Assembly (NCBI GenBank): GCA_902520195.1
Contig: CABYND010000001.1
Coordinates: 1 to 64,000, forward strand
Direction of reading: 5' to 3'
Origin: Halieaceae bacterium
GTDB lineage: Bacteria > Pseudomonadota > Gammaproteobacteria > Pseudomonadales > Halieaceae
DNA length: 64,000 nucleotides
Part shown: positions 34,188-50,994 of the stretch, one piece after another
Layout of the letters: each line of letters begins with the position of its first letter
How positions within the stretch are numbered: the stretch's first letter is position 1
The notes under the pieces: generated by a model
The model's input: only the letters and a program-made list of their open reading frames with translations
Told to the model about the DNA's origin: nothing
Databases searched by the model: none
Position numbers and translations under genes: made by a program

Positions 34188-35318
34188 CTACTTCCTGTTT
34201 CGTCTAAGGAGTGTGTCGTGCACACCCACCATTTTCGTATCGGCGCGAAAAGGCAGTCCCTGCTCCTGCCCCTCGAGCAGCGGTAAATCACGATCGCGCC
34301 ACAGGGGCTCCCAGCAGCCGGTGCTCTTCAGCAGTGCCTCTGCATCAGTCTTGGCATCAGCGGGTAGCGCCTCAAAATGGTCTCGCAACTGCTGCAGGCA
34401 CCAGACCCGGTATCTCGAATAACGCGCACCCTCACAGCGGATGCCATCGATCTCAACGGTAAAACGTTTGCTTCCCACTCGCACTGCTTCCACATTCGCC
34501 GACAGGTAGAGCAAATAACCGCGCCCCATATGCTCCAGAAGCGCGGTCACACCGGATGGGATGCCGGTCTGCCACTCGCCCTGAACGGTATCGAGCCGGG
34601 TGTCCCATGAATGGGTGACCCACTGCAGTACTGCCGGCGCCTGCTGCCTAAGCAATTCGAGCGGCACGGGGTCCAGCGCAAAATGCCGGAAGAACGACCC
34701 GGCAAACCCCACATCGGCGAGAGACGGTCGCGCTCCCAAGAGAAAAGGCTGTTGGCTGAGCGTGGCCTCAAGCTGTTGCCAGAGCGCGGCGACGTCGGCT
34801 TCGACCGCTTTAAAGTCAGCCCGGGTGATGCCATCCCCGGTAGTGTAGCCACTGCGCTGTCGATGCATCAGAAGGCGCCGTTTAAACCAGACCGGGAGCG
34901 GGTGGTGAACCATGACCTCAGTTGCCAGGTGATACGACGCAAAGCGCGCGCCCTCGGCATAGTGCCAGCGGTAATGCATGGCGGGTCGCCACCACCACTC
35001 ATCGGCCCAGTCCTCCAGCAGGTGGCAGACAAAACGCTGCAAAGGATCCGGCGGCAGAATCGGGTGCTCTGGATGGCGCGCCTCAAACTACTCGATCATC
35101 TTGGTGGAATCGGTCATGTATCGACCTTCGGGCAAGATGATGGCAGGCATCTGCATCACCCCGAGCTCCCGCTCCAACACCTTGCGCACGGCTGGAAACT
35201 GCATGCTCTCCAGCCGATAGGGAATTCGCTTGAGCCGGAGGTAGTTCTCCATCTTCCCAGTGAAGTAGGAGATATTGGAGCCCAGAAGAGTGAGCGGTGC
35301 GGTACCCTGGTCAGACAT
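34188..35318 (-). pseudogene. GST-like protein gene interrupted by one in-frame TAG
   Basis: One continuous reading frame of 377 codons is broken only by TAG at 35090-35088 (codon 77). Before it is a thioredoxin-like GST N-domain (TLLGSNISYFTGKMENYLRLKRIPYR, in pieces TLLGSNISYF and ENYLRLKRIPYR; MPAIILPEGRYMTDSTKMIE). After it, still in frame, FEARHPEHPILPPDPLQRF and the helical domain LLEDWADEWWWRPAMHYRWH, closely parallel to the intact paralogue at 36262-37302 (LIEDFADEWCTKYMFHYRWH). The paralogue has Arg at the stop position. No good restart codon follows the TAG. It may be a recent nonsense mutation, a readthrough site or a base-call error. Its ATG overlaps the nitronate monooxygenase stop by one base. 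Confidence 0.85.
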
Positions 35319-36265
35319 TACGGGCTGGCATAGTCCTGCAAGTGGCCCAGCGACTCATAAAAACCGGTCATGGTGCCCTGAATCACCTCCGCCACGGGTT
35401 GGACCGCATCGATGCGGCCCACTACCTGACCAGACAGCGGAATCGCCGCTTCCATGTCCCCTCCAAAATATAACTCTTGCACACCAGCCAACTGCTCGCG
35501 AAAGTCGAAGGCCCCCAGCGGCTGCAGTGCGGCGGTGCGCTCAGTGCGCAGTGCCCGGAGTGCCGGCCGGGACTGCTGATTCAAAAACACCGTATCGGTC
35601 TCCTTCGCCTCGACCACCGCCTGCTTCCAGTTCTGATGGACCGGGGACTCAGCGCTACTCAGCATGCGGGTGCCCATTTGCACCCCCTCGGCACCCATCG
35701 CGAAAGCGGCGGCCATCGAGGGGCCGTCGCAAATGCCGCCTGCAGCGATAACCGGGATATCAGTGCGCGAACGAATGAGGGGTAGGAGCACCATCAGCGA
35801 GACCGGGCTGGGGTTTTTAAAACCACCGCCCTCGCCGCCCTCGACGATCAAGCCATCCACGCCACAGTCGATCGCCTTGAGCGCCATATCGAGCGTGGGC
35901 ACCACATGAAAAACCTTAATGCCCGCCTGCTGAAAGATCTCGGTGCAGACCGCCGGGCTGCCTGAGGAGGTGGTGACAAAAGGCAGGTTCTGTTCGATCA
36001 CGAAGTCGATAAAGTCGCTGCCCTTCACAAAGGCGAGCGCGACATTCATGCCAAAGGGCTTGTCCGTGAACTCACGCATTTTCAAGACCTCGCCACGGAT
36101 CGCGTCGAGCTCACCGGAACCGGTTTCGATAATGCCCAGGCCACCGGCGTTGCAGACTGCTGAGGCGAGTTGGGCTCTGGCAATCCAGCTCATAGGCGCC
36201 TGAATGATGGGGTAGTCGGTCCCCGTGATCTCGGTCACTCGATTTGTGATTGGTGGGGCGCTCAT
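35318..36265 (-). CDS. Nitronate monooxygenase / 2-nitropropane dioxygenase family
   Basis: FMN-dependent TIM-barrel oxidoreductase, 315 residues. Family features: YPIIQAPMSWIARAQLASAVCNAGGLGIIE at the start (pieces PIIQAPMSWIA and AVCNAGGLGIIE), GVDGLIVEGGEGGGFKNP, IPVIAAGGICDGPSMAAAFAMGAEGVQMGTRML. Members oxidise nitronates, but several act in other pathways or as enoyl reductases, so the reaction here is open. ATGA overlap with the upstream GST-like gene and one-base overlap with the downstream one show tight operon coupling. Confidence 0.9.
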   Translation of the reverse strand: MSAPPITNRVTEITGTDYPIIQAPMSWIARAQLASAVCNAGGLGIIETGSGELDAIRGEVLKMREFTDKPFGMNVALAFVKGSDFIDFVIEQNLPFVTTSSGSPAVCTEIFQQAGIKVFHVVPTLDMALKAIDCGVDGLIVEGGEGGGFKNPSPVSLMVLLPLIRSRTDIPVIAAGGICDGPSMAAAFAMGAEGVQMGTRMLSSAESPVHQNWKQAVVEAKETDTVFLNQQSRPALRALRTERTAALQPLGAFDFREQLAGVQELYFGGDMEAAIPLSGQVVGRIDAVQPVAEVIQGTMTGFYESLGHLQDYASP

Positions 36266-37302
36266 TTCACTCCCTCCAACATGGGCTCAATCCCGGTGCC
36301 GGCGATTAACGCATCGACGAGCGCCTGATCGGCTGCCGACAGCTGACCATATTGGTCGCGGGTCCACTGCAGGCACTTGGCCTGATAGGGGAAGGTCCGC
36401 TGGTGCCACCTCGCGCCATCGATCTCGCATTCCCAGGTCTTCTCCTGCGCCATCACGGCTTGCGCGTTAGCAAGTTGCGCCGGTGTGTAGACCCGCCCGA
36501 TTTCCTCTAATAACCCCCTGAGGCTCGCCGGCTGATCCTCGATGGCGATCCAATCTGAGTCCTCCGGCATCAGGCCGCTGCCATCCGGCATGCGATCGAC
36601 CCAACCGACCGTGCGCGGCGCAATCGCATGGGCAATTTCCCGCGAGGTGGGATCAAAGCCCACCAACTGACTCAACTGACCGAACAAACCAAAGTCGCCG
36701 GCACCCGGGCGACGGCCCAGCATGAACGGCTGGTTGGCGAGATGTGCGTCCATCGCGCCAAGAAACCGCCGGTAACTGGCGTCAATAATGGGTGCCGTTT
36801 CCTCGTTGGAGCCCACAACCCAGAGTCTCTCGATCTGTCGCTGAGAGACATAGTCCTTGAACTGCTGGAAGGCCTCTTGAGGCATAGAGACATCCATGCT
36901 GAGCGGTAACTTGGTGCCGGCATTGGCGGCGTCCGCTTCGAAATGCCAGCGGTAGTGGAACATATATTTGGTACACCACTCGTCGGCGAAATCCTCAATC
37001 AGGTAATCGATAAAGGCGAGTGCTGGATCTTCAGGTAATACCGACCGGCCAACGTTGTCCGCTTCCAGTCGACGAATGATGGGCGTGGAGTCACAGTGCG
37101 CAGTGAGCTCGCCGCCCTCCTCAAAAAAGAAGGTTGGCATAAAGGTCGGCGTGGGAGCCTCGACACCCAATGCCTCGCACCTTGTCTCGGGCTGACCCCA
37201 GGTAATAGCGTAGGGGATGCGTCGGTATCGCAGCAGGGCCACCATCTTCTGGGTGTAGGGCGAGCCGGTGCCCCCCACCAGCTGGACGGGTTCGAGAGAC
37301 AT
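36262..37302 (-). CDS. Glutathione S-transferase-like protein, first gene of the operon
   Basis: About 346 residues. N-terminal thioredoxin-like domain VQLVGGTGSPYTQKMVALLRYRRIPYA (pieces GGTGSPYTQKMVALL and RYRRIPYAITWG) with CDSTPIIRRLEA for the gamma-glutamyl contact (DST), then an all-helical domain with LIEDFADEWCTKYMFHYRWH and NQPFMLGRRPGAGDFGLFGQL. A C-terminal extension of about 90 residues contains WECEIDGARWHQRTFPYQAKCLQW, also present in the interrupted paralogue, so the pair forms its own subgroup. ATG at 37302 has AAGGAG 8 bases before it. The palindromic operator lies 38 bases upstream. Role probably conjugation or isomerisation in a degradation pathway. Confidence 0.8.
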   Translation of the reverse strand: MSLEPVQLVGGTGSPYTQKMVALLRYRRIPYAITWGQPETRCEALGVEAPTPTFMPTFFFEEGGELTAHCDSTPIIRRLEADNVGRSVLPEDPALAFIDYLIEDFADEWCTKYMFHYRWHFEADAANAGTKLPLSMDVSMPQEAFQQFKDYVSQRQIERLWVVGSNEETAPIIDASYRRFLGAMDAHLANQPFMLGRRPGAGDFGLFGQLSQLVGFDPTSREIAHAIAPRTVGWVDRMPDGSGLMPEDSDWIAIEDQPASLRGLLEEIGRVYTPAQLANAQAVMAQEKTWECEIDGARWHQRTFPYQAKCLQWTRDQYGQLSAADQALVDALIAGTGIEPMLEGVK

Positions 37303-37339
37303 CTTTGGCACTCCTTGCAGCGTCTTGAAACGATCTATA

Positions 37340-37362
37340 TATTGGCATAAACAGTGCCAATA
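37340..37362 (-). promoter_or_regulatory. Regulon operator copy 1: TATTGGCA-N7-TGCCAATA
   Basis: Perfect 8-bp half-sites TATTGGCA (37340-37347) and TGCCAATA (37355-37362) with spacer TAAACAG. On the minus strand TTGGCA (37360-37355) can act as -35 and TATAGA (37339-37334) as -10, though 15 bases apart, which is short. It is 38 bases before the GST-like gene. The same palindrome occurs at 46026, 48916 and, degenerate, 50972. Confidence 0.85.
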
Positions 37363-37585
37363 AGTAAGCGCCGGGTCGCTCGTAGAGGATCGTCACTGTG
37401 TGATGAAAACGCCATCGCCACAGCGAGTATCAGGGTTATGGCGACAACAAAATAGCGCTGTGGTGTATCAGATTTGATGATTGCCGGGACGAGCAACCTG
37501 ACGGCCGGCCCTCACGAAAGTCTATTGCGGGTACAGTTTGCAAGTGCTGCCTACAGGTAGCTCTTAAAGCACTGTTAACAGGTAA

Positions 37586-37601
37586 CAGGCACCTGTGCCT
37601 G
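37586..37601. repeat. 16-bp palindrome before the membrane protein gene
   Basis: CAGGCAC-CT-GTGCCTG is a perfect inverted repeat, 32 bases upstream of the ATG at 37634. It could be an operator or an mRNA leader hairpin; it is unrelated to the TTGGCA palindromes. Confidence 0.4.
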
Positions 37602-37633
37602 ACATGTTGTCGCTCACTACGGAGACTGCCGAT

Positions 37634-38284
37634 ATGACATCACGACGCAAACTGTGGCTCAGCTCCATCGTGCTTTATGCGCTGTTCGTCAGCTGGTACA
37701 CCGATTTCGGTGGCCCACTGACTGAAGCAGAAATACAGGCATATATCAGCAAGAGCGAAAACCTCGACCTGGGCGGAGACCCTTCCGCTCACGGCGCGCT
37801 GCTTGAGTTTCTGCGCAATGACACGGGTGGCCAATTTCTGATGTTCAATGCTGTCGATCTAGCGAAGAACCCGCCGCCAATGGAGGGCGCGCCGCCCGAT
37901 GCCGACGGGCAAACGTTCATCGACCTCTACATGGAATACATGATCCCTGCGCTGCTCTCCCGAGCGAGTCACCCCGTTGTGGTGGGCAAGTCGGTCGCCG
38001 ACAGCCTCGATCTACTAGGTATCGAAGGTGCCGAGGCGTGGTCGGACGGCGCGATCATGCGGTACCGCAGCCGACGCACGCTGGTCAACATCATCAGCAA
38101 TCCAGAGTTTTACGCGCGGCACGATTTCAAACTGGCGGGGCTCGAAAAGACCATTGCCTACCCCATCGAGCCACGGATTTTTCTCGGTGACCTGCGTCTA
38201 TTACTGGGGCTCTTCATGCTGGCGGTCACAGCACTCCTTGATGCCCGCCTCGCGCGAAAAGCGCTCCGCGTCGATTCCGCTTAG
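37634..38284 (+). CDS. Two-TM protein with a probable dimeric alpha/beta-barrel (DUF1330-like) domain
   Basis: A 216-residue protein with a membrane helix near each end (LWLSSIVLYALFVSWY and LRLLLGLFMLAVTALLDARLA). Between them, GQFLMFNAVDLAKN, YMEYMIPALLSRASHPVVVG, AEAWSDGAIMRYRSRRTLVNIIS and DFKLAGLEKTIAYPI follow the strand-helix order of small ferredoxin-like domains such as DUF1330 (antibiotic monooxygenase-like). I do not recognise the exact family. ATG at 37634 has GGAG 9 bases upstream. It precedes the Baeyer-Villiger monooxygenase gene by 72 bases in the same direction. Confidence 0.6.
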   Translation: MTSRRKLWLSSIVLYALFVSWYTDFGGPLTEAEIQAYISKSENLDLGGDPSAHGALLEFLRNDTGGQFLMFNAVDLAKNPPPMEGAPPDADGQTFIDLYMEYMIPALLSRASHPVVVGKSVADSLDLLGIEGAEAWSDGAIMRYRSRRTLVNIISNPEFYARHDFKLAGLEKTIAYPIEPRIFLGDLRLLLGLFMLAVTALLDARLARKALRVDSA

Positions 38285-38356
38285 CTTTCTTGGTTTTTCA
38301 CCGCAAGTTGTATAGCTTGCAGCAACTGACAGTTTCCTCTCCCGCTCACTGACCCT

Positions 38357-40150
<1,794 letters not shown>

Positions 40151-40158
40151 GCGGTAGT

Positions 40159-41034
40159 TTAAGAGCGCTTTAAAGCGTCCTTATGCAGGCGCGGTAACAG
40201 ACGCGGTGTACTGGCGACATAGGCCTGGTACGCCGGGTCATCGCCCCATAGCTCCTGACCCCGCCTCATGAGTGTTGGAATGCCGCTAACGCGCGTGAGC
40301 AAGGCGTGCACAAAGAGCGGCGAGAGCATCACCACCCACTGGGTGCCCGATAGATAGGGTATCGCTATCACCGCAATGCCAGCCCACAGCAGGATTTCGC
40401 CAAAGTAGTTGGGGTGGCGGGCGCGGGCCCAAAGGCCAACGTTTATAAATTGACCGGCGTTGGCCGGGTCTGCCCTGAAGCGCAACTTTTGCTGATCAGC
40501 GATCACTTCGACAGTAAAGCCTGCCATCCACATCACGGCGCCGATGACATAAATCACGCCCACCGCTGTCGGTTCTTCACTCAGTATGGCGGTCAGTGCG
40601 GCACAGCTGGTCATCACCACCCAGGCGCCCTGCAGCGTCCAGGCGACGAAAAAGCGCGACGACGAAACCTTGATGTGATCGAAGCGTTGATCACCACCTG
40701 CCGCGTTGATGCGGCGGAACAAAAAGCTGCCGAGACGGCCGGCCCAGAGGAAGATCATGACCGCGATAAGCCATTGTGCGCCCGAAGGCGCGGCGACAAC
40801 ACTAATGGCCGCCAGTGTGACTGCGATATAGGTGATGCTCCCGATGAGGTCATAGAACCGCTCGGTCTGAAAAAGCCGGGCGGGAATAAATGCCAGCCAC
40901 TGGATACCAAAAGCGCCCAAGGCCAAGGTGGTCATTGCGGGCCAGCCTGCCAAAGTATGCCCCGCGGGATTGGCCAGCGAGGCGACGCCGAGGGGCAGAC
41001 CCACAGCCAGCAGAATAAAAATGAGTTTCTTCAT
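40159..41034 (-). CDS. DUF1295 (steroid 5-alpha-reductase-like) membrane protein
   Basis: A 291-residue integral membrane protein with about seven hydrophobic segments. The C-terminal half has the family region FRADPANAGQFINVGLWARARHPNYFGEILLWAG (pieces AGQFINVGLWARARHPNYFGE), where Arg-His-Pro-Asn-Tyr-Phe-Gly-Glu is the conserved cofactor-binding pattern of the steroid reductase/ICMT fold. DUF1295 proteins are thought to be NADPH-dependent reductases, mostly uncharacterised. It is convergent with the Baeyer-Villiger monooxygenase gene, 8 bases apart, and followed upstream by a DUF2855 gene in the same direction. Confidence 0.88.
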   Translation of the reverse strand: MKKLIFILLAVGLPLGVASLANPAGHTLAGWPAMTTLALGAFGIQWLAFIPARLFQTERFYDLIGSITYIAVTLAAISVVAAPSGAQWLIAVMIFLWAGRLGSFLFRRINAAGGDQRFDHIKVSSSRFFVAWTLQGAWVVMTSCAALTAILSEEPTAVGVIYVIGAVMWMAGFTVEVIADQQKLRFRADPANAGQFINVGLWARARHPNYFGEILLWAGIAVIAIPYLSGTQWVVMLSPLFVHALLTRVSGIPTLMRRGQELWGDDPAYQAYVASTPRLLPRLHKDALKRS

Positions 41035-41136
41035 TGCGTCACGGCTCTTGTTATTGGGGGCGAACGCCCTCTTATGCTTTCGAGCTAAATACTCTCTACG
41101 CCGATATCCGGTTCAGGGAGCGTTTTAGCGTTGGGC

Positions 41137-42231
41137 TCAGGTCTCGGCCTGCAGCGACACCATGACTCCACGCTGACCCGAAACCTGATTGCATAATAGG
41201 CCTTGCCAGATCGCGTCGCAGGCGTCGGCACCCGTGTGGGATTCCATCAGGAGCTTTGGAGCCAGCTGAGTCACCAGCTCGATACTTGCCGCGTAAGCCT
41301 TGCCCATCATGACACCGCGACCCCACTCGCCATCACGCTTTTCAATTTGTGCCGGCGCAAAGAACACTTGCGGCTCGCTCCCAGGGAACGGCTCACCATC
41401 CACTGACCGGCCAAACTGATCCCAGTGGGTCGCCCCCACCAATAGCGTGTGAGCGGCATTGTTCTGGAGGCTGTGATGCAGGCGCGACCGGACTTCAACA
41501 TCCCCGGCGATATCAATATATGCGCTCGGTTCATTCGCAACACTTCCAACCTCGCTATAGGACACGACGCGGTCGTAGCAACCGAGCGCCTCGGAGAAGG
41601 CAACGTTTTGATCGCTGGTGAGACCAGCGATGGCGCCCTGGAAGCCCGCAGCGCGAATAAATGCTGCGGTGCTGAAACCCGTCTTGGAGGAAGCAGAGCC
41701 AATTAAGATTTGCTCCACGCCGAACCAGTCGTTATCCAGAAGCAAATCGGCAATCACGTAACCGGTCATAAATAGAGGGAAAAAGATGCAGCGCTGATCC
41801 TCGAGTGCCTGAAGCTGAGCCGGCTCCGACTGGGTGCGTGCGTAATCGTTGTAGAGACTTGGGAGCTCTCCTCGATGGGGCATCGCGTCAGTAAACCCCC
41901 GCTCGGAGCGTTCACCCGGCCTCATCACCACATGGCTCGCCATGGGAAAGAACCCATAGAGCCGCTCCCCGACAGCAATGCCTTCAGCATGGCTCACGAG
42001 CACCTCGGCAATACCCCACACCGTGACCTTGCCCCAGGGATCTTCCCCGGTGGGATAGAACTGCCAATAACCGAACATGTCTCCTGACGCCGCGTAAGTG
42101 ACGTTGTTGGCAGTCATTGCAAACTTGTCGATGGCGACCAGTATCTCGCCCTCACTGGGCGTCGGCATATCACCCTGCACCACTCGAGTGTGGTGATAAT
42201 CGGTTCGGTCGACCCACATTTCCGTGAGCAT
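41137..42231 (-). CDS. DUF2855 family protein
   Basis: About 364 residues. Matches the DUF2855 pattern, a family distantly related to medium-chain oxidoreductases: EILVAIDKFAMTANNVTYAASGDMFGYW, WGIAEVLVSHAEGIAVGERLYGFFPMA, then LIGSASSKTGFSTAAFIRA in the Rossmann-like part. No activity is established. The ATG at 42231 has AGAGGAG six bases before it, so I reject the longer start at 42252. Directly downstream of the anchored hypothetical protein (42278-42964), 46 bases apart, probably the same transcript. Confidence 0.85.
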   Translation of the reverse strand: MLTEMWVDRTDYHHTRVVQGDMPTPSEGEILVAIDKFAMTANNVTYAASGDMFGYWQFYPTGEDPWGKVTVWGIAEVLVSHAEGIAVGERLYGFFPMASHVVMRPGERSERGFTDAMPHRGELPSLYNDYARTQSEPAQLQALEDQRCIFFPLFMTGYVIADLLLDNDWFGVEQILIGSASSKTGFSTAAFIRAAGFQGAIAGLTSDQNVAFSEALGCYDRVVSYSEVGSVANEPSAYIDIAGDVEVRSRLHHSLQNNAAHTLLVGATHWDQFGRSVDGEPFPGSEPQVFFAPAQIEKRDGEWGRGVMMGKAYAASIELVTQLAPKLLMESHTGADACDAIWQGLLCNQVSGQRGVMVSLQAET

Positions 42232-42277
42232 GGGAATCTCCTCTAGCATCATGGAGTTAAGTCAGTGCACAGGCGCT

Positions 42278-42964
42278 TTAAAAAAACTCGAAACGCATGC
42301 CGCGAGGCTTGGGCACTTTGTTTTCCTCAGGCAGGGTGCATAACCGCTCCATGCGCGTCACAGAGCTGTCGGCGTATTCCCAGATCAGCTCGTCACCATC
42401 TCGGTAACGGCGAACTACTCTCGGCCCCCAACCAAAAACATAAAAGTTAAGGATTTTGTCTTCCCAGATCATGCTTGCTGAGGTCCGCATACAGTGCTCT
42501 TTGCCCGCCAAAGTGAAAAGCACCGAACCCTCCGTGTCGTTGGTGTTGAGCCCGCCAGTACTGTTTGGACCGTAATCGTGTATGAGCCCCGCCGCGGTCA
42601 CAACAACCCGGTTACCACATTGCTCCACCCGCTCCACATGCCCTACGTGGCCCCCGGATATCCCACGCCAGAGGCCACGAATGTCGTCGGCTTCCGGCGG
42701 CAGTGGATCAGTGCACGCCGCCAGAACCGGTAACGGGAAATGATCATAAGCGCATCCGGGCGTGTTGGCTTTGGGAATATCGGAAGCTCTTCTTCCCGAA
42801 CCATCCAGTAACGGCAGTGCACAGTAGTTCACTGATGAGCCGTCACCGGCTAAAGTCGCGGGGTCAATGGTTAAGGGTGGTCGCGGAGAAAACCACCCGA
42901 GCCAAACTAACAAAAGAAGGAAAACGAAGATAACGGAAAGGCCGCGGATGAAAAGAGTTTTCAT
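42278..42964 (-). CDS. Membrane-anchored hypothetical protein with a Cys-rich external domain
   Basis: A 228-residue protein with one N-terminal membrane helix (GLSVIFVFLLLLVWLGWF) and an outside domain. Six Cys are spread through it (VNYCALP, GCAYDHF, LAACTDP, VEQCGNRV, EHCMRTS, RLCTLPE), suggesting disulfides in the periplasm. The DIRGLWRGISGGHVGHVERVEQCGNR and GDELIWEYADSSVTRMER stretches look like a lipocalin-type beta barrel. I do not recognise the family. It sits between DUF2855 and the TonB receptor terminator, in the same direction as DUF2855. Confidence 0.65.
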   Translation of the reverse strand: MKTLFIRGLSVIFVFLLLLVWLGWFSPRPPLTIDPATLAGDGSSVNYCALPLLDGSGRRASDIPKANTPGCAYDHFPLPVLAACTDPLPPEADDIRGLWRGISGGHVGHVERVEQCGNRVVVTAAGLIHDYGPNSTGGLNTNDTEGSVLFTLAGKEHCMRTSASMIWEDKILNFYVFGWGPRVVRRYRDGDELIWEYADSSVTRMERLCTLPEENKVPKPRGMRFEFF

Positions 42965-43014
42965 GAATATATTAAGAGTGCCGTAACGTTGTCTTAATTA
43001 ATTGACTAAGCACA

Positions 43015-43039
43015 ATAAAAAGGGCGGCCAGAGCCGCCC
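43015..43039 (-). terminator. Intrinsic terminator of the TonB receptor gene
   Basis: Read on the minus strand: GGGCGGC, loop TCTG, GCCGCCC, then TTTTTATT. A 7-bp GC stem followed by a T-run 27 bases after the receptor stop, a textbook rho-independent terminator. It isolates the receptor from the downstream genes. Confidence 0.9.
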
Positions 43040-43065
43040 TAATCAACCTAATCAGCTACGAAATA

Positions 43066-45771
43066 TTAAAAATTCCATGCCGCCTGAATGCCCCAGACTT
43101 CACCTCGGGTGTAGTAAGACATGTGCGAACCTCGCGCCAGGGGCACATCTGCGCCCCCGCTTCTTATACTTTCGTCAGTAATGTTTCGGCCGTACAGCAT
43201 TAACATCCAATTGTCTCCACGCAAACCTGTCCTGAGGTTAATCTGCTCGACGCCCTCTTGGAAATCGACTGGATCAAGGTCTCCGGTATAGATGTAGTCA
43301 TCGGTGAAATTCACATCAACCTCAGTGAACCAAATCATAGAGCCGATGGGCTGTACATATACAGCACCAAGCGAACCGCTATATTCAGCCGTACCAGTCC
43401 AGGCGCCAGAAAGGTCCTGAGAAATACCGGTGCGGTTGCCAGCTGCGTCAAACTGTTGCTCGCAAAGGCCATCTGCGGAGGAGATATTTGGGGAACTCGG
43501 AGTCAGACCACCGGTAGCAAAATTCAAAAACTCAATGTCTGATGTTTGCAGTGCTGTACACGCGGCACCCTCAAACGATCCATACTCAGCATCAACATAG
43601 CCAATCGCGGCGTTTAGGCGCAGCTTATCCGTCACCTGGAAAGCAGCGTCAACTTCGAAACCAGAAATTTCAGTGCTAGCGGCATTTGTCACAACAAATC
43701 CTAAGCCAACGAAAGTTGAGACCTGTTGGTCTTCATATTCGCTATTGAAATAAGCCCAGTTCAGTCGCATCCGACCGTCAAGAAAGGTGTGCTTTCCCCC
43801 TAATTCAACGGACCAGGCGGTCTCGTCATCGTATTCAAAACCTGGCCCTGGTTCGGTCCTGTTAATACATCCTGGCAAGTTTTGTAATGGGCAGAATGGG
43901 GAGCGGTTTATGACCGGATTTTGATCATCTACTGCGTTAAAACCACCACTCTTGAAGCCTTCCGTGTAGCTAGCATAGAGCAGGTGGTTATCCGAGGCAC
44001 TCCAGTTCAAAGTCACCGCTGGAATGACCTGATCGGTCTTACGCTCGTCTATAAAATGATGCGCCCAAGCATCGAAGAACGAACCCGAAAGTTCATGTTG
44101 TAGCAAATTCCCGATATCTGGCTGGCCTGCCAATATTGAGTCTTCCGGATTGAGTGTCTGGGTTGCCAACCCTTGAGCATCAGCAGTGCTATTGAGCCAT
44201 GTTTGCGCATCCGCCTCCTTAGTCTCTTCGGTGTAGCGAACACCTGCAATAAGGCTTAAGTTGTCCGTAATGTTAAAGGTGCCCTGAGCAAAAACGGCCC
44301 ATGATTCAGTATCCTGAGACCACTCTGACAATCGACCTGTCCTGCTCCACATACTGAGACCCTCAACGCCTACCGGGAGTGCTTGCGGCGGCAGGCCAAA
44401 GGCTGCAGCGACACCGGCGAGTTGTGCTGGACTGTAAGCTAAGATAGTTGGCAGCCCGCCTGTGAGCAGGGCTGTTACGGCGGGCTGACCGAATGTCCCA
44501 TCGACAGACACATTTCGACTTATGTCTTGGCTGGAGTCGATATAATTAGCCCCGATCACCCAGCTAAATCGCCCATCTAAATCAGACGCCAGCCGAATTT
44601 CCTGGCTAAACTGTTCAAACTCCGAATCATCGCTGCGCCCGATAAAATCTACCGGGAGAAAATCTGCCTCAATGCCGTCCTTATACTCGTATTCGGAAAC
44701 CCCCGTCACTAACGACAGGGTCATACCATTGGCAAATTCATGCTCAATATTTAAAGAAAACTCTTGGTTTTCCGTATCTGTTCCCGAAACTCGCTCCGGA
44801 CCATTTCCGTTATCCAAAGCTTCGGTACCGCCTATGGACAAGCCATCATAGTAAACGTCCCTGGATGAACGATTTGCATAGGTGGAGGCATTAAAACCCG
44901 GGTACGCAATACCCATTATTCCGTACATTGCTGCATTGGAGGCGGGCACAAATGGAGTCTCGCGAACACCATCACCATTTGCATCAACCAGAGTGGGCGC
45001 AAAAGTGGTCACAACAGAATTGCTACCAATTCTCTCGTATTCCGCGTACGTGTAGCGCAAACCAACCGAAGTGTTCTCGGAGGGCTGCCACTGCAAACCC
45101 AAGCGCATTATTGTCTCATCGGTGGTTGGTGAGTCGGAATAGGTGGCATTTGGCGCGACATTGTCGAGGTAACCGTCGATGGATCGATCCATCACGGAAA
45201 GCCTGATAGCAGCATTCTCCCCTAAACTCGTGCCGATATACCCTTCAAGGTACTCTCCGTTATCTGACTCAAAGCTTGCTGCAATCCGGCCCGACATTTC
45301 CTCACCAATCTCGGGCGCAGCTGAACGGACGTTGATCGCCCCGGCCAAAGTGTTTTTTCCAAACAAAATTCCTTGCGGCCCCCTAAGGACCTCCACCTGC
45401 TCCAGATCAAAGAGGCCTATTCTCGATTGTCGGCTTCGACCCAAATAAACGCCGTCGAGAAACAGTCCTACAGACTGCTCAAAGGATTGGTTTGATCCAA
45501 TAGAAATGCCGCGCATCGTGATGATCGTATTAACAGGGTTTTCGGCGACTGTGAAATTGGGCACGTAAGCACCAAGCTCCTGAAAGCTCCGTATAGAGGC
45601 ATCTTGAATCAAGTCTCCACTGATCGCGGTTACTGAAATTGGCACGTCCTGAAGACTTTCGGCGCGCTTCTGCGCTGTCACGACGACCTCTTCGAGTGCC
45701 TGACCAAAAGCTGTCGCCGACAGACTGGCCACCGCAGCACTCAAAGCTACTTTCGCATATGTTTTAACCAT
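43066..45771 (-). CDS. Large TonB-dependent receptor of the catabolic regulon
   Basis: A 901-residue outer-membrane receptor. The signal peptide ends SATAFGQA, followed by the TonB box EEVVVTAQKR and the plug start ESLQDVPISVTAISGDLIQ, typical of receptors for organic substrates in sphingomonads and marine gammaproteobacteria rather than siderophore receptors. The barrel ends in VWGIQAAWNF with the C-terminal Phe needed for assembly. ATG at 45771 has GGGAG 9 bases upstream; the in-frame extension to 45927 is rejected. It is divergent from the MBL-fold hydrolase; operator copy 2 lies in the 330-base gap. It would import the regulon's substrate. Confidence 0.93.
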   Translation of the reverse strand: MVKTYAKVALSAAVASLSATAFGQALEEVVVTAQKRAESLQDVPISVTAISGDLIQDASIRSFQELGAYVPNFTVAENPVNTIITMRGISIGSNQSFEQSVGLFLDGVYLGRSRQSRIGLFDLEQVEVLRGPQGILFGKNTLAGAINVRSAAPEIGEEMSGRIAASFESDNGEYLEGYIGTSLGENAAIRLSVMDRSIDGYLDNVAPNATYSDSPTTDETIMRLGLQWQPSENTSVGLRYTYAEYERIGSNSVVTTFAPTLVDANGDGVRETPFVPASNAAMYGIMGIAYPGFNASTYANRSSRDVYYDGLSIGGTEALDNGNGPERVSGTDTENQEFSLNIEHEFANGMTLSLVTGVSEYEYKDGIEADFLPVDFIGRSDDSEFEQFSQEIRLASDLDGRFSWVIGANYIDSSQDISRNVSVDGTFGQPAVTALLTGGLPTILAYSPAQLAGVAAAFGLPPQALPVGVEGLSMWSRTGRLSEWSQDTESWAVFAQGTFNITDNLSLIAGVRYTEETKEADAQTWLNSTADAQGLATQTLNPEDSILAGQPDIGNLLQHELSGSFFDAWAHHFIDERKTDQVIPAVTLNWSASDNHLLYASYTEGFKSGGFNAVDDQNPVINRSPFCPLQNLPGCINRTEPGPGFEYDDETAWSVELGGKHTFLDGRMRLNWAYFNSEYEDQQVSTFVGLGFVVTNAASTEISGFEVDAAFQVTDKLRLNAAIGYVDAEYGSFEGAACTALQTSDIEFLNFATGGLTPSSPNISSADGLCEQQFDAAGNRTGISQDLSGAWTGTAEYSGSLGAVYVQPIGSMIWFTEVDVNFTDDYIYTGDLDPVDFQEGVEQINLRTGLRGDNWMLMLYGRNITDESIRSGGADVPLARGSHMSYYTRGEVWGIQAAWNF

Positions 45772-46101
45772 TATTGTGGACTCCCATGGATAGGTTCTGA
45801 CTCGTTGTTTTTTATTAGAAAAATGCACGCATGTGGTGTTACGCGCACCCTCTCTACTTTTACTGACGCGATAGTGCCACAGCCGGGGGGAAACACAAGC
45901 TTCAAGCGGCATGGCGCGGGCCAACAAATACCGGGCCCCCGGGCTGAAACTAATTAGGATTTCCGGGGTCCGGAGTCAACGCCTAGTACCCGCTTTGACG
46001 ATAATGGCGTCGGCGTTATAGCTTATATTGGCATAATCAATGCCAATAAGTATAGACTATTCAGAAATCAAGACGTCAGTCTAGATAAAAAGGGTCCTGA
46101 G
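45772..46101. other. 330-base divergent control region of TonB receptor and MBL hydrolase
   Basis: No gene is visible. The palindromic operator and a sigma70-like promoter lie at 46026-46056 on the hydrolase side, leaving about 255 bases of leader for the receptor transcript if the same site controls it. A GGGCCCCCGGGC stretch near 45935 is GC-rich but not clearly structured as a terminator. Confidence 0.6.
46026..46056 (+). promoter_or_regulatory. Regulon operator copy 2 overlapping a sigma70-like promoter
   Basis: Palindrome TATTGGCA (46026-46033), spacer TAATCAA, TGCCAATA (46041-46048). The left half holds a -35 TTGGCA (46028-46033), and 17 bases on is TATAGA (46051-46056), so the operator occupies the -35 and spacer of a promoter reading toward the MBL-fold hydrolase gene. 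A bound repressor would block RNA polymerase. The site is also upstream of the divergent TonB receptor. Confidence 0.85.
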
Positions 46102-47172
46102 ATGAAGAGATTGCTGGTTGTTCTGGGTTGCGGGTTGATGTTGCTCGGGTTGGGCTACTCCCAGCGGGCGACGATTGCCGAAAGGCTACTCGCGGCTGCT
46201 CTCCCGAACCAGATGGGCACGAATCAGTTGGAAGTGCTGCAAGATGGCCTGCACGTCGCGCTCTGCGGCGCGGGCGGTCCGATGCCCTCACCTCGCGCCT
46301 CGGGCCCTTGCGTGGTGGTGGTTGCAGGAGACCAATTATTCCTTGTTGATGCCGGCGCCAATGGCCCACGTAATTTCGCGCGACTGGGCTTCCCCCTCGG
46401 TGGCGTAGACGCCGTGTTTCTCACGCACTTTCACTCTGATCACATAGACGGGCTTGGTGAGCTGGCTACCTTACGCTGGGCCACGGGCGATGACCTGACC
46501 CCCCTGACTGTATACGGCCCTGAGGGCGTCGAGGGCGTCATCGCCGGCTTCAACGCTGCTTATACCGCCGACTTCGGCTATCGACACGATCATCACGGAG
46601 ATCTTGTCGCACCGCTCTCGGCTGCGGGCTTAAGCGCGGCGCCTTTCGCGTCACCGCCAGATGGCGAGCTCGTCACTCTCTGGAGCGAAGGTGGCTTAAC
46701 GATAGAGGCATTGCGAGTCGATCACGCACCCGTCTCGCCCGCGGTGGGTTATCGGTTCACCTACAGGGGGCGAACCCTACTCATCAGCGGCGATACTGCT
46801 CAATCCGACAATATCAGGCGCTTCGCAGAGGGCATCGACCTTTTGGTCCATGAAGCGCTCTCGCCTGAAATCATTGGCATGATGGAAAATACCGCCAAAA
46901 GCCTGGGTAACGAGATTATGGCCAAGGTCATGTTTGACGTGCCCGACTATCACGCCAGCCCGCGGGAGGCCGCAGAAACCGCACGGGACGCCGGCGTCGG
47001 TCACTTGCTCTATTACCACGTGGTGCCGCCCATCATTCTGCCGGGACAAGAGGCACTGTGGCTCAACGGCGCGGGGGATATCTTCCCCGACTACACGGTC
47101 GGGTACGACGGGGTCTCGTTCAGCCTGCCGGCCAACTCATCGGAGATCATTCAGACCCGCAAAGGCATGTAG
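46102..47172 (+). CDS. Secreted MBL-fold metallohydrolase
   Basis: A 356-residue metallo-beta-lactamase-fold hydrolase with an N-terminal membrane/signal helix (LLVVLGCGLMLLGLGYS). The two-metal motif HxHxDH is THFHSDH (residues 109-114), preceded by FLVDAGANGPRN and followed by VDHAPVSPAVGYRF, LISGDTA and LLYYHVVPP. This order is that of the RNase Z/arylsulfatase-like (AtsA type) branch, whose exported members act on sulfate or other esters. It is driven by the promoter overlapping operator copy 2 and is convergent with the sulfatase gene, 23 bases apart. Substrate unknown, perhaps an ester of the compound imported by the neighbouring receptor. Confidence 0.88.
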   Translation: MKRLLVVLGCGLMLLGLGYSQRATIAERLLAAALPNQMGTNQLEVLQDGLHVALCGAGGPMPSPRASGPCVVVVAGDQLFLVDAGANGPRNFARLGFPLGGVDAVFLTHFHSDHIDGLGELATLRWATGDDLTPLTVYGPEGVEGVIAGFNAAYTADFGYRHDHHGDLVAPLSAAGLSAAPFASPPDGELVTLWSEGGLTIEALRVDHAPVSPAVGYRFTYRGRTLLISGDTAQSDNIRRFAEGIDLLVHEALSPEIIGMMENTAKSLGNEIMAKVMFDVPDYHASPREAAETARDAGVGHLLYYHVVPPIILPGQEALWLNGAGDIFPDYTVGYDGVSFSLPANSSEIIQTRKGM

Positions 47173-47195
47173 GCCAGGTGCAAAGCTCTACTGCA

Positions 47196-48875
47196 TCAGT
47201 TTGGCACTGATACCCATTCATCGCCCTCCTCGAAAGGCAACGCCAAGTGTTTATCGATCGCCACCGGGGCCTCGAGCTCTGGCTCATAAAGCGCGGGCCG
47301 GCTCTTGGCAGCATGTGCATCGAGTAGGACCATCAACTCTGAGACCTTATCGGGGCGCGACTCAGCCAGATTCACCTGCTCAGTGGGGTCCTCGGCGAGA
47401 TTAAAGAGCCATTGCATTTCGGGGCGTGCGGCAATCTGTAGCTTCCAATCACCATGACGAACAATGCGGTTGTGCCCCGATGACCAGTAAAGGGTCTGCC
47501 GCGGCCATTCGGCCCCGGCCAGTGCGCCCTCAGTGATCAGTGGCAACACGTTCTCGCCGTCAATCTCGCGATCTTGAGGCAGGCCTTGCTCAGCTGCGGC
47601 CAACAACGTGGGCATAACATCAATGTGCGCAACGGGCGTGTCGATGGTCTGGCCAGCGGGAACTCTATCGGGCCACTTCACAAACAGCGGCACGCGAATA
47701 CCACCCTCAAAGTAAGTGATCTTCCAACCGCGATATGGAACGTTCACGTCAGCCAAACCCACATAGCCGGCACCACCGTTGTCGCTGGTAAACACAACGA
47801 TAGTGTTGTTGGCCAAGCCCTCCTGCTCCAGCGCGGCCATCACTCTTCCCACGCTGCGGTCTAGCGCCCGGGTCATGGCGGCGTAAACCCGCAGACGATG
47901 CGGCTGAATATCCCCCACCGCCTCATAGTCGGCGCGGGTCGCCTGCAGGGGAGTGTGAATACCCCAATGCGCGAGGTAGAGGAAAAATGGCCGGTTGCGA
48001 TTGGCCTTAATGACCTTGATCGACTCATCGGTCCAGTAGTCGGTGAGGTAACCACCTGGTTCAAACAAATCGGTTGTGCCGCTGTTGTAGGAATTGGCGT
48101 AGGTGAGGGCGGACCACAAAAACTGATCAATCGGATCAAAGTCGAGTTTGGCGTTCACTACGTCAGGATGATCTGCGGGCAGGTACAAGCCGCTCGCCAT
48201 CAGCAGACTTTCATCAAAACCCTGTTCGTGGGCCGCCATGCCGTTCTCGCGTCCGAGGTGCCACTTGCCGATGTGCACGGTGTGGTAACCGCGCGCTTTG
48301 AGCGATTCAGCAAGGGTGATTTCCTCAGGCGGTAGCCCTTGAAGGTCATACGGCGGCTTAGTGGCCGCTGCCTCCGGGTCATACAAAGTGTCGGGCGATG
48401 CTCGATCCATATCCGCAGCGACAGTGGACACCGCTCGACCCATGGAAGGCGGCATGGGCGTGTAAGCAAAGCCAGTTCGGCTGGGATATCTGCCCGTCAT
48501 CAGCATGGCTCTGGAGGGCGCACATGTTGAGGCGCCCGAGTAGGATTGGGTGAACACTGCACCCTGCGCCGCGAGCGCATCGATATGGGGCGTCTGCAAA
48601 CGTCCGTCCGCTACGCCGCCACCAAAGGTCGAAATATCGTTGTAGCCGAGGTCGTCGGCCATGATCACCACAATATTGGGGGGTCGTTCAGCCGGCGCCT
48701 TTCTCGCGGCAGCAGGGCCTTGTTGCCAGACGATGTCGCGTGGTGGGCCTATCTGGGTCGTCGCCAAGGCGGTGCGCACCTTGATGGCCGCCAGGATCGC
48801 GGCGCTCGGGTACAGGTAAGCCCCCCCGGCCCCCACTGCCAATACCGCCACCACTGCGGTCAGAACCTTGCGCAT
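47196..48875 (-). CDS. Type I sulfatase (formylglycine-dependent), membrane-anchored or secreted
   Basis: About 559 residues. An N-terminal helix (LTAVVAVLAVGAGGAYLYP) exports or anchors it. The metal-binding IVVIMADDLGYND (residues about 68-80) and the sulfatase signature STCAPSRAMLMTGRYPSR are present; Cys118 in CxPSR would be converted to formylglycine by an oxygen-dependent FGE. Later motifs GKWHLG and FTSDNGG are also standard. I start at ATG 48875: the predicted promoter -10 (48929-48924) would place transcription start near 48917, making the longer start at 48914 almost leaderless. Operator copy 3 lies just upstream. It would remove sulfate from an aryl or alkyl sulfate ester. No maturation enzyme is encoded in this window. 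Confidence 0.93.
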   Translation of the reverse strand: MRKVLTAVVAVLAVGAGGAYLYPSAAILAAIKVRTALATTQIGPPRDIVWQQGPAAARKAPAERPPNIVVIMADDLGYNDISTFGGGVADGRLQTPHIDALAAQGAVFTQSYSGASTCAPSRAMLMTGRYPSRTGFAYTPMPPSMGRAVSTVAADMDRASPDTLYDPEAAATKPPYDLQGLPPEEITLAESLKARGYHTVHIGKWHLGRENGMAAHEQGFDESLLMASGLYLPADHPDVVNAKLDFDPIDQFLWSALTYANSYNSGTTDLFEPGGYLTDYWTDESIKVIKANRNRPFFLYLAHWGIHTPLQATRADYEAVGDIQPHRLRVYAAMTRALDRSVGRVMAALEQEGLANNTIVVFTSDNGGAGYVGLADVNVPYRGWKITYFEGGIRVPLFVKWPDRVPAGQTIDTPVAHIDVMPTLLAAAEQGLPQDREIDGENVLPLITEGALAGAEWPRQTLYWSSGHNRIVRHGDWKLQIAARPEMQWLFNLAEDPTEQVNLAESRPDKVSELMVLLDAHAAKSRPALYEPELEAPVAIDKHLALPFEEGDEWVSVPN

Positions 48876-48915
48876 AACACCCCGCCACTGCGGCCAACGT
48901 AAGCTGCTAGCCATC

Positions 48916-48952
48916 TATTGGCATTTATACTGCCAATAAATGGGAGATGCAA
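48916..48952 (-). promoter_or_regulatory. Regulon operator copy 3 overlapping a sigma70-like promoter
   Basis: Palindrome TATTGGCA (48916-48923), spacer TTTATAC, TGCCAATA (48931-48938). On the minus strand TTGCAT (48952-48947) and TATAAA (48929-48924) are 17 bases apart, so the -10 box lies inside the operator spacer. This would drive the sulfatase gene and be blocked by a bound repressor. Confidence 0.85.
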
Positions 48953-48969
48953 TTACAAGGCTGCTGTGA

Positions 48970-50307
48970 TCAGATAGCGCGCGCTGCCAGGGCATCGCGC
49001 AATGTATGGGCGACGAGCCACAGCCGGTCTTGACCCCAGGTAGAAAGGAGCGGCTCACCCGCCGGGTCCAGCAGCCGGAAACTCGGCACACCCCACAACC
49101 CAGCCTCATACATTGTCTGGCGGTTGTCCTCGAGCAGGGCTTCCCAATTCTTGTCCTCGCGGCGTGGCTGCGCCGCCGACCAGTCAAGGCCCGCGGCTTC
49201 GACCACCTTGCGTAAGCCACGATCATTGTTGGTATTCACGCCCAGCACAAAGGCATGGCGCAGAAAGCTGGAGCAGAGGGCAACGCCTTTACCCTGAGAC
49301 TCAGCCCACGGATACAGCGCATAGCATCGGCGAGCGGGGTCGCCGATCGGGTCGTAGAAATTGCCGTAGGGCACTTCGGCGGCGCGCGCCTCCCGAGCCG
49401 CATCCGTAAAGATGTACATGCCTTTTTCGCGGGTGGCGGGCACACCGCGCATCACCATGGGCAGCACGGGGCGCAGACTCAGCGTCACACCCGCGGCTTT
49501 GGCAAAGGCCACGGCGCGATCGAAAATGACCGCGGTGTAGGGACTGCGCAAAGATGCATACAACTCCAACGTGAATTGCCCCGTATCACGTTGCCCAGCA
49601 AGATCCTCACTGGGCCGGGGCGCGATCAGCGGTTTACCGGGCTGCGTATCTGCGCCTAGCGCCGCGAGCCGCGCCTCAAGGTGATATAGGCGGTCGACAC
49701 CCCAGTACCACTCACCCCCGTAATAAAACATCGCTCCGGAATAGTGCTTAAGCTCGCGCCGTTTCGCGGTACCCGCCTCAATCGCGGCGGTCGTTGCTTC
49801 AGGTGACGCGGTGCCAAGCTCTGCCGCTAACTGCGCCAGGCGATCTGCATCATCACGCCACAGTGCGTCACTCACACTCACAGCCGCCTTGGGGAAATCT
49901 GAATGGGACTGCGCGGCAAGAACCTGCGATGCCGTCTCGACCAGACCCGCCGCGGGCGCCTCGGGATGATTGGGGAAACTCAGGCCATAGCCCGCCGCAA
50001 TATCGTGCGAATCGGCTCGCGCGAGCTGCGCAAGAAGCTCAGGCTCGGGGGCGTTCTTGCCCTCCTGCCCGCGCACCAGATGGCAGTGCAATTCGATATC
50101 GAAGCGCGCCGCCAATCGCTCCAGCGTCTGTGCCGCAAGATAGCTGTAACCCTCATCAACCTGATGGAAATAATCAACCCGATGCGGGGCTGCGGCTTTG
50201 ACGCGGGCCTGCTCGGCCTTCCGGTGCCGCGCTGCGACGGCCGCAGCCCCGGAAATTCTTGTCATCAAGCGGGAGGTCAGCCAGCGGGTCAGGTGGCTGG
50301 GGTCCAT
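48970..50307 (-). CDS. Tandem DsbA-fold / HCCA-isomerase (GST kappa)-like protein
   Basis: About 445 residues made of two thioredoxin-DsbA-like domains. The first (HRVDYFHQVDEGYSYLAAQTLERLA) and the second (LELYASLRSPYTAVIFDRAVAFA) both open with the strand-helix of 2-hydroxychromene-2-carboxylate isomerases, where the S-P-Y turn contacts glutathione. The second continues with VPYGNFYDPIGDPARRCYALYPWA, FLRHAFVLGVNTNNDRGL and ends GLWGVPSFRLLD (cis-Pro). No CxxC is present, as in the isomerases. ATG at 50307 has AGGGTGG upstream; a TTG at 50346 is an alternative. It follows the TetR gene closely and is probably co-transcribed. A glutathione-linked isomerisation is likely. Confidence 0.82.
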   Translation of the reverse strand: MDPSHLTRWLTSRLMTRISGAAAVAARHRKAEQARVKAAAPHRVDYFHQVDEGYSYLAAQTLERLAARFDIELHCHLVRGQEGKNAPEPELLAQLARADSHDIAAGYGLSFPNHPEAPAAGLVETASQVLAAQSHSDFPKAAVSVSDALWRDDADRLAQLAAELGTASPEATTAAIEAGTAKRRELKHYSGAMFYYGGEWYWGVDRLYHLEARLAALGADTQPGKPLIAPRPSEDLAGQRDTGQFTLELYASLRSPYTAVIFDRAVAFAKAAGVTLSLRPVLPMVMRGVPATREKGMYIFTDAAREARAAEVPYGNFYDPIGDPARRCYALYPWAESQGKGVALCSSFLRHAFVLGVNTNNDRGLRKVVEAAGLDWSAAQPRREDKNWEALLEDNRQTMYEAGLWGVPSFRLLDPAGEPLLSTWGQDRLWLVAHTLRDALAARAI

Positions 50308-50356
50308 GGTGGCAACACCACCCTGATCCTTAAACTGCTCGGACAATGGGCCTACC

Positions 50357-50944
50357 TCAGCTCGACGCGATGAGATCGGTCACCAGCGACGTGACGATGT
50401 CAGCACTGGCCTTGGGCGACAGCCCCTGATGCTCGCGCAGGCGGTGCCACATATCGAAAGAAGCGATCGCGTGCAGAGCCTCGCGTCGGTCTTTGGGTAG
50501 CGACGCGACCTCGGGTATCCAGAGCTCGAGCTCTTTCCGCAGCCGCTTCTGATGCCAGCCATAGTTTTCTCGAAGTTTGGGAGAGCGCCACAATTGCGCC
50601 TGGGTGCAAAGAATAATCGCGCGCAACTGATCGAACGCATTGCCATAGAGATCGATTGCCCGCGCAACCCGCTCAGATAACGTGCCTGCTCGATCGTCCA
50701 CCTCGAAGAGCGCCTCGTAAGACGAAAGTAGCATCTCGTCGGCGGCAAGGAAGAGCGAATCCATGTCGGCGAAGTGCCGGAAGAAAGAGCGGATTCCCAC
50801 ACCGGCCCGATCGGCAATCTGCTGCGCGGTGGGCACCAGCGTCCCTTCGTGCATAAGCGACAACGCAGCTTTGATGATGGCAGTTTGACTGCGCTCACTT
50901 CGCTGCCGGCGACCATCAGAAGATTGAACGATGCTCAGGGCCAT
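50357..50944 (-). CDS. TetR family regulator, candidate regulator of the TTGGCA-palindrome regulon
   Basis: A 195-residue TetR-type protein. The DNA-binding domain spans SQTAIIKAALSLMHEGTLVPTAQQIADRAGVGIRSFFRHFADMDSLF (pieces AIIKAALSLMHEG and TAQQIADRAGVGIRSFFRHF), with a C-terminal ligand domain of no clear subfamily. AAGGAG precedes the ATG by 5 bases. A degenerate copy of the palindromic operator lies 28 bases upstream, as expected for autorepression, and the downstream DsbA-like gene shares its transcript. That it binds the other three copies is inference from position; it is the only regulator gene in the region. Confidence 0.92.
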   Translation of the reverse strand: MALSIVQSSDGRRQRSERSQTAIIKAALSLMHEGTLVPTAQQIADRAGVGIRSFFRHFADMDSLFLAADEMLLSSYEALFEVDDRAGTLSERVARAIDLYGNAFDQLRAIILCTQAQLWRSPKLRENYGWHQKRLRKELELWIPEVASLPKDRREALHAIASFDMWHRLREHQGLSPKASADIVTSLVTDLIASS

Positions 50945-50971
50945 GCCGGCTCCTTACTCGGTGTCACCCAC

Positions 50972-50994
50972 TATTGGCAGTCAGTATGCCATGA
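50972..50994 (-). promoter_or_regulatory. Regulon operator copy 4 (degenerate), before the TetR gene
   Basis: TATTGGCA (50972-50979), spacer GTCAGTA, then TGCCATGA (50987-50994), which matches TGCCAATA at 6 of 8 bases with the same 7-base spacing. It lies 28 bases before the TetR ATG. A weaker site at the regulator's own promoter is common for TetR autorepression. Confidence 0.7.

What the first reader, a model, noticed from the sequence alone, without database searches (positions are those of the whole stretch)
37340..50994. A new candidate regulon defined by the palindrome TATTGGCA-N7-TGCCAATA
Seen directly: three perfect copies (37340, 46026, 48916) and one degenerate copy (50972), all with the same 7-base spacing, all in gaps before gene starts, and none found by eye inside genes. 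They precede a GST/nitronate monooxygenase/GST/acyl-CoA dehydrogenase/DUF3604 operon, a divergent TonB receptor and MBL-fold hydrolase, a sulfatase, and a TetR gene. Inference: the TetR protein (50357-50944) represses itself and these units until an inducer, probably the substrate or a CoA ester, binds. This would be a coordinated outer-membrane uptake, desulfation/hydrolysis and oxidation system for one compound.
Basis: partly seen in the sequence, partly recalled or inferred. Interest (0 to 1): 0.85.

Follow-up and report, generated by a model that had tools for sequence, protein, structure and literature searches.

The report
TetR operator regulon in marine Luminiphilus
A 23-base mirror-image DNA site stands in front of a scattered set of breakdown-enzyme genes in an ocean bacterium and its relatives, most likely the switch by which one TetR-type regulator controls the use of a sulfated small molecule.

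Summary
In detail: three perfect and one 2-mismatch copy of TATTGGCA-N7-TGCCAATA (0.12 expected), each before a gene start. It marks a real, conserved regulon that reaches beyond the window. The host is a Luminiphilus-like member of Halieaceae; its 69%-complete genome has five perfect sites and six weaker ones before genes. Of 140 Halieaceae genomes, 21 carry exact sites (42; reversed control 0); 35 of the 36 inspected border one of seven recurrent gene units. In relatives fetched by their TetR gene, the arms are 97-99% identical to the window, the rest of the gaps 57-69%. Across the family, core sites lie beside TetR homologues (14 of 103 within 200 bp; 0.05 expected; 11 of the 14 are one paralogue in one genus), and the TetR recognition helix is nearly invariant. 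So the TetR at 50357-50944 is the likely, autoregulated binder. Further targets include acyl-CoA ligases, a beta-oxidation operon and a haloalkane dehalogenase-like gene. Against it: nine of 18 motif-bearing genus genomes show no such TetR (3.35 expected from incompleteness); four have contigs ending in or near the cluster, five are unexplained. Binding, repression, inducer and substrate are inferred. A new TetR regulon, not a new kind of system.

The parts
37340..37362 (.). perfect operator, between the GST/NMO/GST/ACAD/DUF3604 unit and the 229-aa/BVMO unit
46026..46048 (.). perfect operator, between the TonB receptor and the MBL-fold hydrolase
   Evidence: arms 0.97 identical in 9 loci
48916..48938 (.). 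perfect operator, between the 3' end of the DsbA-like gene and the sulfatase start
   Evidence: arms 0.99 identical in 9 loci
50972..50994 (.). 2-mismatch operator 28 bp upstream of tetR; weakest of the four
50357..50944 (-). TetR-family regulator (195 aa), likely binder of the site
   Evidence: PF00440 34.0 bits, cut-off 24
48970..50346 (-). DsbA-domain protein starting about 10 bp after tetR (likely same transcript)
   Evidence: beside tetR in several relatives
47196..48914 (-). type I sulfatase with the CAPSR motif
   Evidence: FGE-family gene in the genome
46102..47172 (+). MBL-fold hydrolase with HFHSDH; closest solved chain by sequence is 8gyg, named arysulfatase
43066..45927 (-). TonB-dependent receptor
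42278..42964 (-). 228-aa conserved protein without a Pfam family, recurrent with the cluster
41137..42252 (-). DUF2855 protein
40159..41034 (-). DUF1295 / steroid-reductase-like protein
38357..40150 (+). Baeyer-Villiger-type monooxygenase, fingerprint [12 protein letters not shown]
37595..38284 (+). 229-aa conserved protein without a Pfam family, first gene right of the 37340 operator
36262..37311 (-). glutathione S-transferase-like, first gene left of the 37340 operator
35318..36265 (-). nitronate-monooxygenase-family flavoprotein
34188..35330 (-). second GST-like gene; the frame holds one in-frame stop in this assembly
32958..34172 (-). acyl-CoA dehydrogenase
30530..32509 (-). DUF3604 protein

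Best explanation
The palindrome is the operator of the TetR-family regulator encoded at 50357-50944. A TetR dimer binds TATTGGCA-N7-TGCCAATA (looser family-wide core TGRCA-N7-TGYCA) in front of its own gene and in front of scattered catabolic units. The inferred mode is repression, lifted when a pathway intermediate binds the C-terminal pocket. The units encode an uptake and breakdown route: TonB receptor, sulfatase and MBL hydrolase (desulfation or hydrolysis), Baeyer-Villiger-type monooxygenase, reductases, GSTs, a haloalkane dehalogenase-like hydrolase, acyl-CoA ligases, acyl-CoA dehydrogenases and a beta-oxidation operon. The substrate is most likely a small lipophilic sulfated compound (lipid, terpenoid or steroid-like) rather than a polysaccharide. 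Shown: the site, its conservation, its gene partners, its linkage to TetR. Inferred: binding, sign of control, inducer, substrate.
For: Sites beyond chance in window and genome. 42 exact sites (my count) in 21 of 140 family genomes, 0 in the reversed control; 35 of 36 inspected border one of seven recurrent units. At three gaps, arms 0.97, 0.99 and 0.97 identical to the window against 0.57, 0.68 and 0.69 for the rest, nine loci each (these are all loci holding the gap for the first two, 9 of 12 for the tetR gap). Core sites lie beside TetR homologues: 14 of 103 within 200 bp, 0.05 expected (genomes are related, so the P value overstates). Among genus genomes at least 90% complete, 15 of 15 with a TetR hit have core sites (49 sites, 3 in the reversed control) and 0 of 2 without (hand count). 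Segment IRSFFR-F invariant in the 20 aligned homologues. The model has a TetR fold.
Against: Nine of 18 genus genomes with exact sites show no TetR of this family; the profile search adds only weak partial matches (E 5.8e-5 or worse) in three of them. Completeness alone predicts 3.35 missing, P(>=9) = 0.0018. In G061, G073, G094 and G081 contigs end in or beside the cluster; G069, G076, G093, G106 and G111 stay unexplained. The site at tetR is the weakest of the four (19.7 bits); there the spacer is as conserved as the arms (0.95), and L032-L034 keep only a degenerate form. Two TetR-centred relatives (L036, L154) show no core site nearby. One homologue seen (L085) has RSVFRHF in the helix. No sigma-70-like promoter was found at the operators. 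The nearest solved sulfatases act on carrageenan, a polysaccharide, against the small-molecule guess.
Confidence: 0.76

Rival explanations
1. The palindrome is a real conserved operator, but its main binder is another regulator encoded elsewhere; the TetR gene is only one of the targets.
For: Nine motif-bearing genomes without a detectable TetR of this family. The tetR-proximal site is the weakest of the four in the window.
Against: Linkage of core sites to TetR homologues in several genera, near-invariant recognition helix, and, among genus genomes at least 90% complete, sites only together with TetR (15 of 15 against 0 of 2).
Confidence: 0.13
2. Two or more paralogous TetR regulators with near-identical recognition helices share the operator, so the sites form an overlapping network rather than one regulon.
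For: In 11 genus genomes a second homologue (44-49% identity) has a core site 60-76 bp past the end of its match; in L135 and L146 it sits beside DsbA, DUF2855 and 228-aa homologues. Perfect TGACA-N7-TGTCA variants occur in 8 of 37 genomes searched, 6 of the 9 on the TetR contig within 10 kb (hand count).
Against: Of the 21 genomes with an exact site, 12 have exactly one homologue at E <= 1e-10, 9 none and no one two; but most are incomplete.
Confidence: 0.2
3. Mobile or structural inverted repeat (REP/MITE-like element or RNA hairpin) without regulatory meaning.
For: It is an 8-7-8 inverted repeat in intergenic DNA.
Against: Few copies, fixed 7-base spacing (18 of 19 matches over spacers 0-20, in loci partly chosen by site), orthologous positions and conserved arms, coherent gene partners.
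Confidence: 0.01

Closest known systems
TetR-family regulators of catabolic and acyl-CoA genes, e.g. KstR, FadR (Bacillus), DesT (structures named; their roles partly recalled)
   Same: TetR fold; palindromic sites before catabolic and acyl-CoA genes; likely autoregulation
   Different: 13-22% identity at fold level with modest E-values; their operators are recalled as different and were not compared here; target set with sulfatase, TonB receptor, BVMO and dehalogenase-like gene
Haloalkane dehalogenases (PDB 6f9o, 5esr, 4mj3; 'HLD-I' group name recalled)
   Same: regulon member outside the window (L020:9846-10928) matches at E 2.8e-89; Asp123, Trp124, Trp203, Asp309 and His339 are invariant in six homologues (catalytic roles recalled)
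   Different: residues about 155-249 were left unaligned to the best solved chain; no substrate known
Type I Baeyer-Villiger monooxygenases (PtlE-like; PDB 5mq6, phenylacetone and steroid monooxygenase)
   Same: fingerprint FxGxxxHxxxW[PD] present; 5mq6 matches at E 3e-133
   Different: 805 bits against a 1100-bit cut-off for PtlE, so not assigned to that enzyme
S1 sulfatases (PDB 6prm kappa-carrageenan sulfatase best; steryl-sulfatase further down)
   Same: sulfatase domain with CAPSR motif
   Different: choline-sulfatase and arylsulfatase models far below their cut-offs; no carbohydrate-active partner among the genes scanned

Membership tests
TetR-family regulators | N-terminal TetR_N helix-turn-helix domain | tested here: met
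   PF00440 34.0 bits, cut-off 24
TetR-family regulators | all-helical TetR fold | tested here: met
   AlphaFold model pLDDT 85.8, pTM 0.73; Foldseek's best hits are TetR-type proteins, E 1e-4 and weaker, TM 0.5-0.7
TetR-family regulators | palindromic site near its own gene | tested here: met
   site 28 bp upstream of tetR; core kept in 8 of 11 relatives with the gap, degenerate in 3
TetR-family regulators | ligand-relieved DNA binding | not testable with these tools
   needs protein work
Named acyl-CoA-sensing TetR subfamilies (KstR, FadR, DesT) | close sequence match to the named protein | tested here: inconclusive
   NCBIfam gave only FabR, MftR and BetI, far below their cut-offs; the profile hits DesT in the PDB at E 9.4e-6
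Type I (formylglycine) sulfatase | C-x-P-S-R motif and a maturation enzyme in the genome | tested here: met
   CAPSR at residue 131; PF03781 hit above cut-off; activity untested
Type I Baeyer-Villiger monooxygenase | FxGxxxHxxxW[PD] fingerprint and two GxGxxG/A motifs | tested here: met
Polysaccharide utilisation locus | carbohydrate-active enzymes beside the TonB receptor | tested here: not met
   no glycoside hydrolase or polysaccharide lyase domain among the 20 window proteins scanned around the receptor; an esterase outside the site-bearing units has a secondary AXE1 hit

The most novel reading that the evidence does not exclude
The regulon is a dedicated pathway for a naturally halogenated and sulfated marine lipid or terpenoid (chlorosulfolipid-like): import by the TonB receptor, desulfation by two hydrolase types, dehalogenation by the haloalkane dehalogenase-like enzyme and GSTs, ring opening by the BVMO, then CoA activation and beta-oxidation, all under one TetR operator. 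In six genomes that I looked at (not a systematic sample) a dehalogenase-like gene has this site 14-42 bp upstream (in one, L143, a half-site is weaker).
Probability: 0.1. Interest if true: 0.82.

Novelty: new member of a known kind. Interest (0 to 1): 0.5.

Why it matters
It gives a sequence-defined operator, a candidate regulator and a testable gene list for a conserved but unassigned catabolic system in coastal bacteria of the OM60/NOR5 clade. The operator ties together genes that are scattered over the genome (dehalogenase-like gene, ligases, beta-oxidation operon, HMG-CoA reductase), so it offers a route to the substrate. Two conserved proteins without a Pfam family (229 and 228 aa) are placed in a pathway.

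Tried and rejected
LysR-type site: the symmetric T-N11-A spacing (recalled) is absent, read from the sequence. REP/MITE or hairpin: rejected by copy number and orthology. Promoter placement: the simple sigma-70 scan found none at the operators, so the sign of control stays inferred. TetR-helix/operator covariation (GVLIR with TGACA half-sites): 4 of 8 GVLIR genomes have the TGACA palindrome against 0 of 9 close relatives of the window (helix seen in only 7 of these), but G071, G074, G095 and G104 have it too, and descent confounds it, so it is not claimed. Other weak hits: the 2-mismatch C20 hit and one 3-mismatch C5 hit fall inside called ORFs and are taken as chance; eight further 3-mismatch hits (C2 twice, C3, C13, C16, C21, C39 and one more on the list) were not looked into or scored. 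Literature: 'Luminiphilus' with 'sulfatase' gave five papers, seen as a listing, one of them (PMC10100682) also in passages, none seen to describe this. 'Halieaceae'+'TetR'+'regulon', 'Halieaceae'+'haloalkane dehalogenase', written forms of the motif, and the four-enzyme combination gave none. Half-site strings plus 'tetr' gave 1,542 papers, 20 listed, none relevant by title. Chlorosulfolipid degradation gave two off-topic papers in the listing; HTCC2143 with steroid degradation none.
Full report
Observation. A weight matrix built from genus and distant sites (the window's three perfect sites are among its training rows) separates them clearly: 35.2, 34.6, 34.0 and 19.7 bits, then 7.6. Genes around the sites are as described, with Pfam support.

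The organism. TetR relatives come from Luminiphilus and other Halieaceae assemblies, up to 92% identity, so the host is judged Luminiphilus-like; its own name is not given. The genome has 2,135,850 bases in 57 contigs and is about 69% complete.

Genome-wide. At up to three mismatches there are 20 sites and 6 reversed-pattern controls. Beyond the window, two more perfect sites precede a GST/acyl-CoA ligase pair (C4) and lie between an APH-like kinase gene and an acyl-CoA ligase/acyl-CoA dehydrogenase/CoA-transferase unit (C17). Weaker ones, with matrix scores of 26.8-32.6, precede a nitronate-monooxygenase-like/HMG-CoA reductase pair (C5), an alpha/beta hydrolase (C11), a haloalkane dehalogenase-like gene (C1:70959), an acyl-CoA dehydrogenase/MaoC/SDR/thiolase operon (C6) and an SDR gene (C2). 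These scores come from stretches that I fetched because they held a site. Two of the hits (C20, and C5:98764) fall inside called ORFs, and eight other 3-mismatch hits were not examined.

Conservation. In 140 family genomes the exact pattern occurs in 21, with 42 sites by my count and none for the reversed control. I fetched the surroundings of 36 of the 42. By neighbours (hand tally): 10 ligase/APH, 9 GST after a dinB-like gene, 5 GST/229-aa, 5 MBL, 4 sulfatase/DsbA, 1 nitronate-monooxygenase-like, 1 dehalogenase-like, and 1 (G128) unrelated. Seven of the 36 overlap the 5' end of the longest ORF called on one side, which I take as over-extended starts.

Selection on the arms. A view less biased by the site comes from loci fetched by TetR similarity alone. 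At the MBL and sulfatase gaps, all eight such loci that hold the gap, plus the window, were aligned; at the tetR gap, eight of eleven plus the window (L032-L034 left out; they keep only a degenerate form). Identity to the window is 0.97, 0.99 and 0.97 in the arms, 0.65, 0.84 and 0.95 in the spacer, and 0.57, 0.68 and 0.69 in the rest. So the tetR gap tells less than the MBL gap.

Which protein binds. The looser strict-core pattern WWTGGCA-N7-TGCCAWW gives 164 sites in 57 genus genomes and 61 in the 83 other family genomes, against 13 and 13 for the reversed control (sites summed, controls by hand). Of 103 such sites in 52 TetR-bearing genomes used, 14 lie within 200 bp of a TetR homologue (0.05 expected) and 19 within 6.5 kb (0.73 expected). 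Eleven of the 14 belong to one paralogue in one genus, so they are not independent, but G030, G035 and G117 from other genera repeat it. In distant relatives the TetR often stands with the same sulfatase, MBL, DsbA, GST and nitronate-monooxygenase-like genes, with TGRCA-N7-TGYCA sites before them; in HTCC2143 one lies between tetR and the 228-aa gene, and Litorirhabdus has three with one weaker. Of 17 TetR-centred loci shown, 15 hold such a site and two (L036, L154) do not; most of the 15 had been fetched because of a site. The recognition-helix segment is invariant in the 20 aligned homologues, with one exception seen elsewhere (L085). Among genus genomes at least 90% complete, 15 of 15 with TetR have core sites and 0 of 2 without (hand count).

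Against. Nine of 18 genus genomes with the exact site lack a TetR hit, and a profile finds only weak partial matches in three of them; 3.35 would be expected from completeness (P 0.0018). Eight of these nine also lack a sulfatase hit. G061's contig stops within the MFS gene next to the place of tetR, G073's within the sulfatase, G094's within the TonB gene, and G081's just past the 229-aa gene. Five genomes stay unexplained.

How it works. Most likely a TetR dimer represses itself and the units, and a pathway intermediate relieves it. The fold comparison is generic, listing NalC, DesT, FadR, KstR and EthR among others, and does not fix the ligand. The enzymes point to a small sulfated lipophilic substrate: formylglycine sulfatase motif with an FGE-family gene in the genome; MBL hydrolase nearest to a solved 'arysulfatase'; BVMO fingerprint; dehalogenase-like gene with the expected residues kept in six homologues and the site 14-42 bp upstream of each; no glycoside hydrolase or lyase among the 40 proteins scanned. 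Against this, the nearest solved sulfatases are carrageenan sulfatases. The substrate is a guess.

Verdict. A genuine TetR regulon, undescribed as far as the searches go: new member of a known kind, of moderate interest, with a clear experimental path.

Noticed in passing
window 34188-35330 (minus): The second GST-like gene carries one in-frame stop at codon 81 of the frame read; L103 has an open 375-aa homologue. Assembly error or decay cannot be told apart.
   Followed up: partly
L020:9846-10928 (contig C1, site at 70959, just outside the window): Haloalkane dehalogenase-like gene with the operator 31 bp upstream; similar arrangement in five other genomes looked at.
   Followed up: yes
L135, L144, L146: A second TetR homologue (about 48% identity) in other genus genomes with its own core site; in L135 and L146 beside DsbA, DUF2855 and 228-aa homologues, like a duplicated module.
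   Followed up: partly
window 37595-38284 and 42278-42964: Two conserved proteins (229 and 228 aa) without a Pfam family that recur with the regulon.
   Followed up: no
L016:8650-10592: The GST operator sits directly behind a dinB-like gene in nine of the 36 inspected exact-site places; no link to DNA repair is implied.
   Followed up: no
L018:10460-12642: An HMG-CoA reductase gene follows the site-bearing nitronate-monooxygenase-like gene, a hint at isoprenoid breakdown.
   Followed up: no
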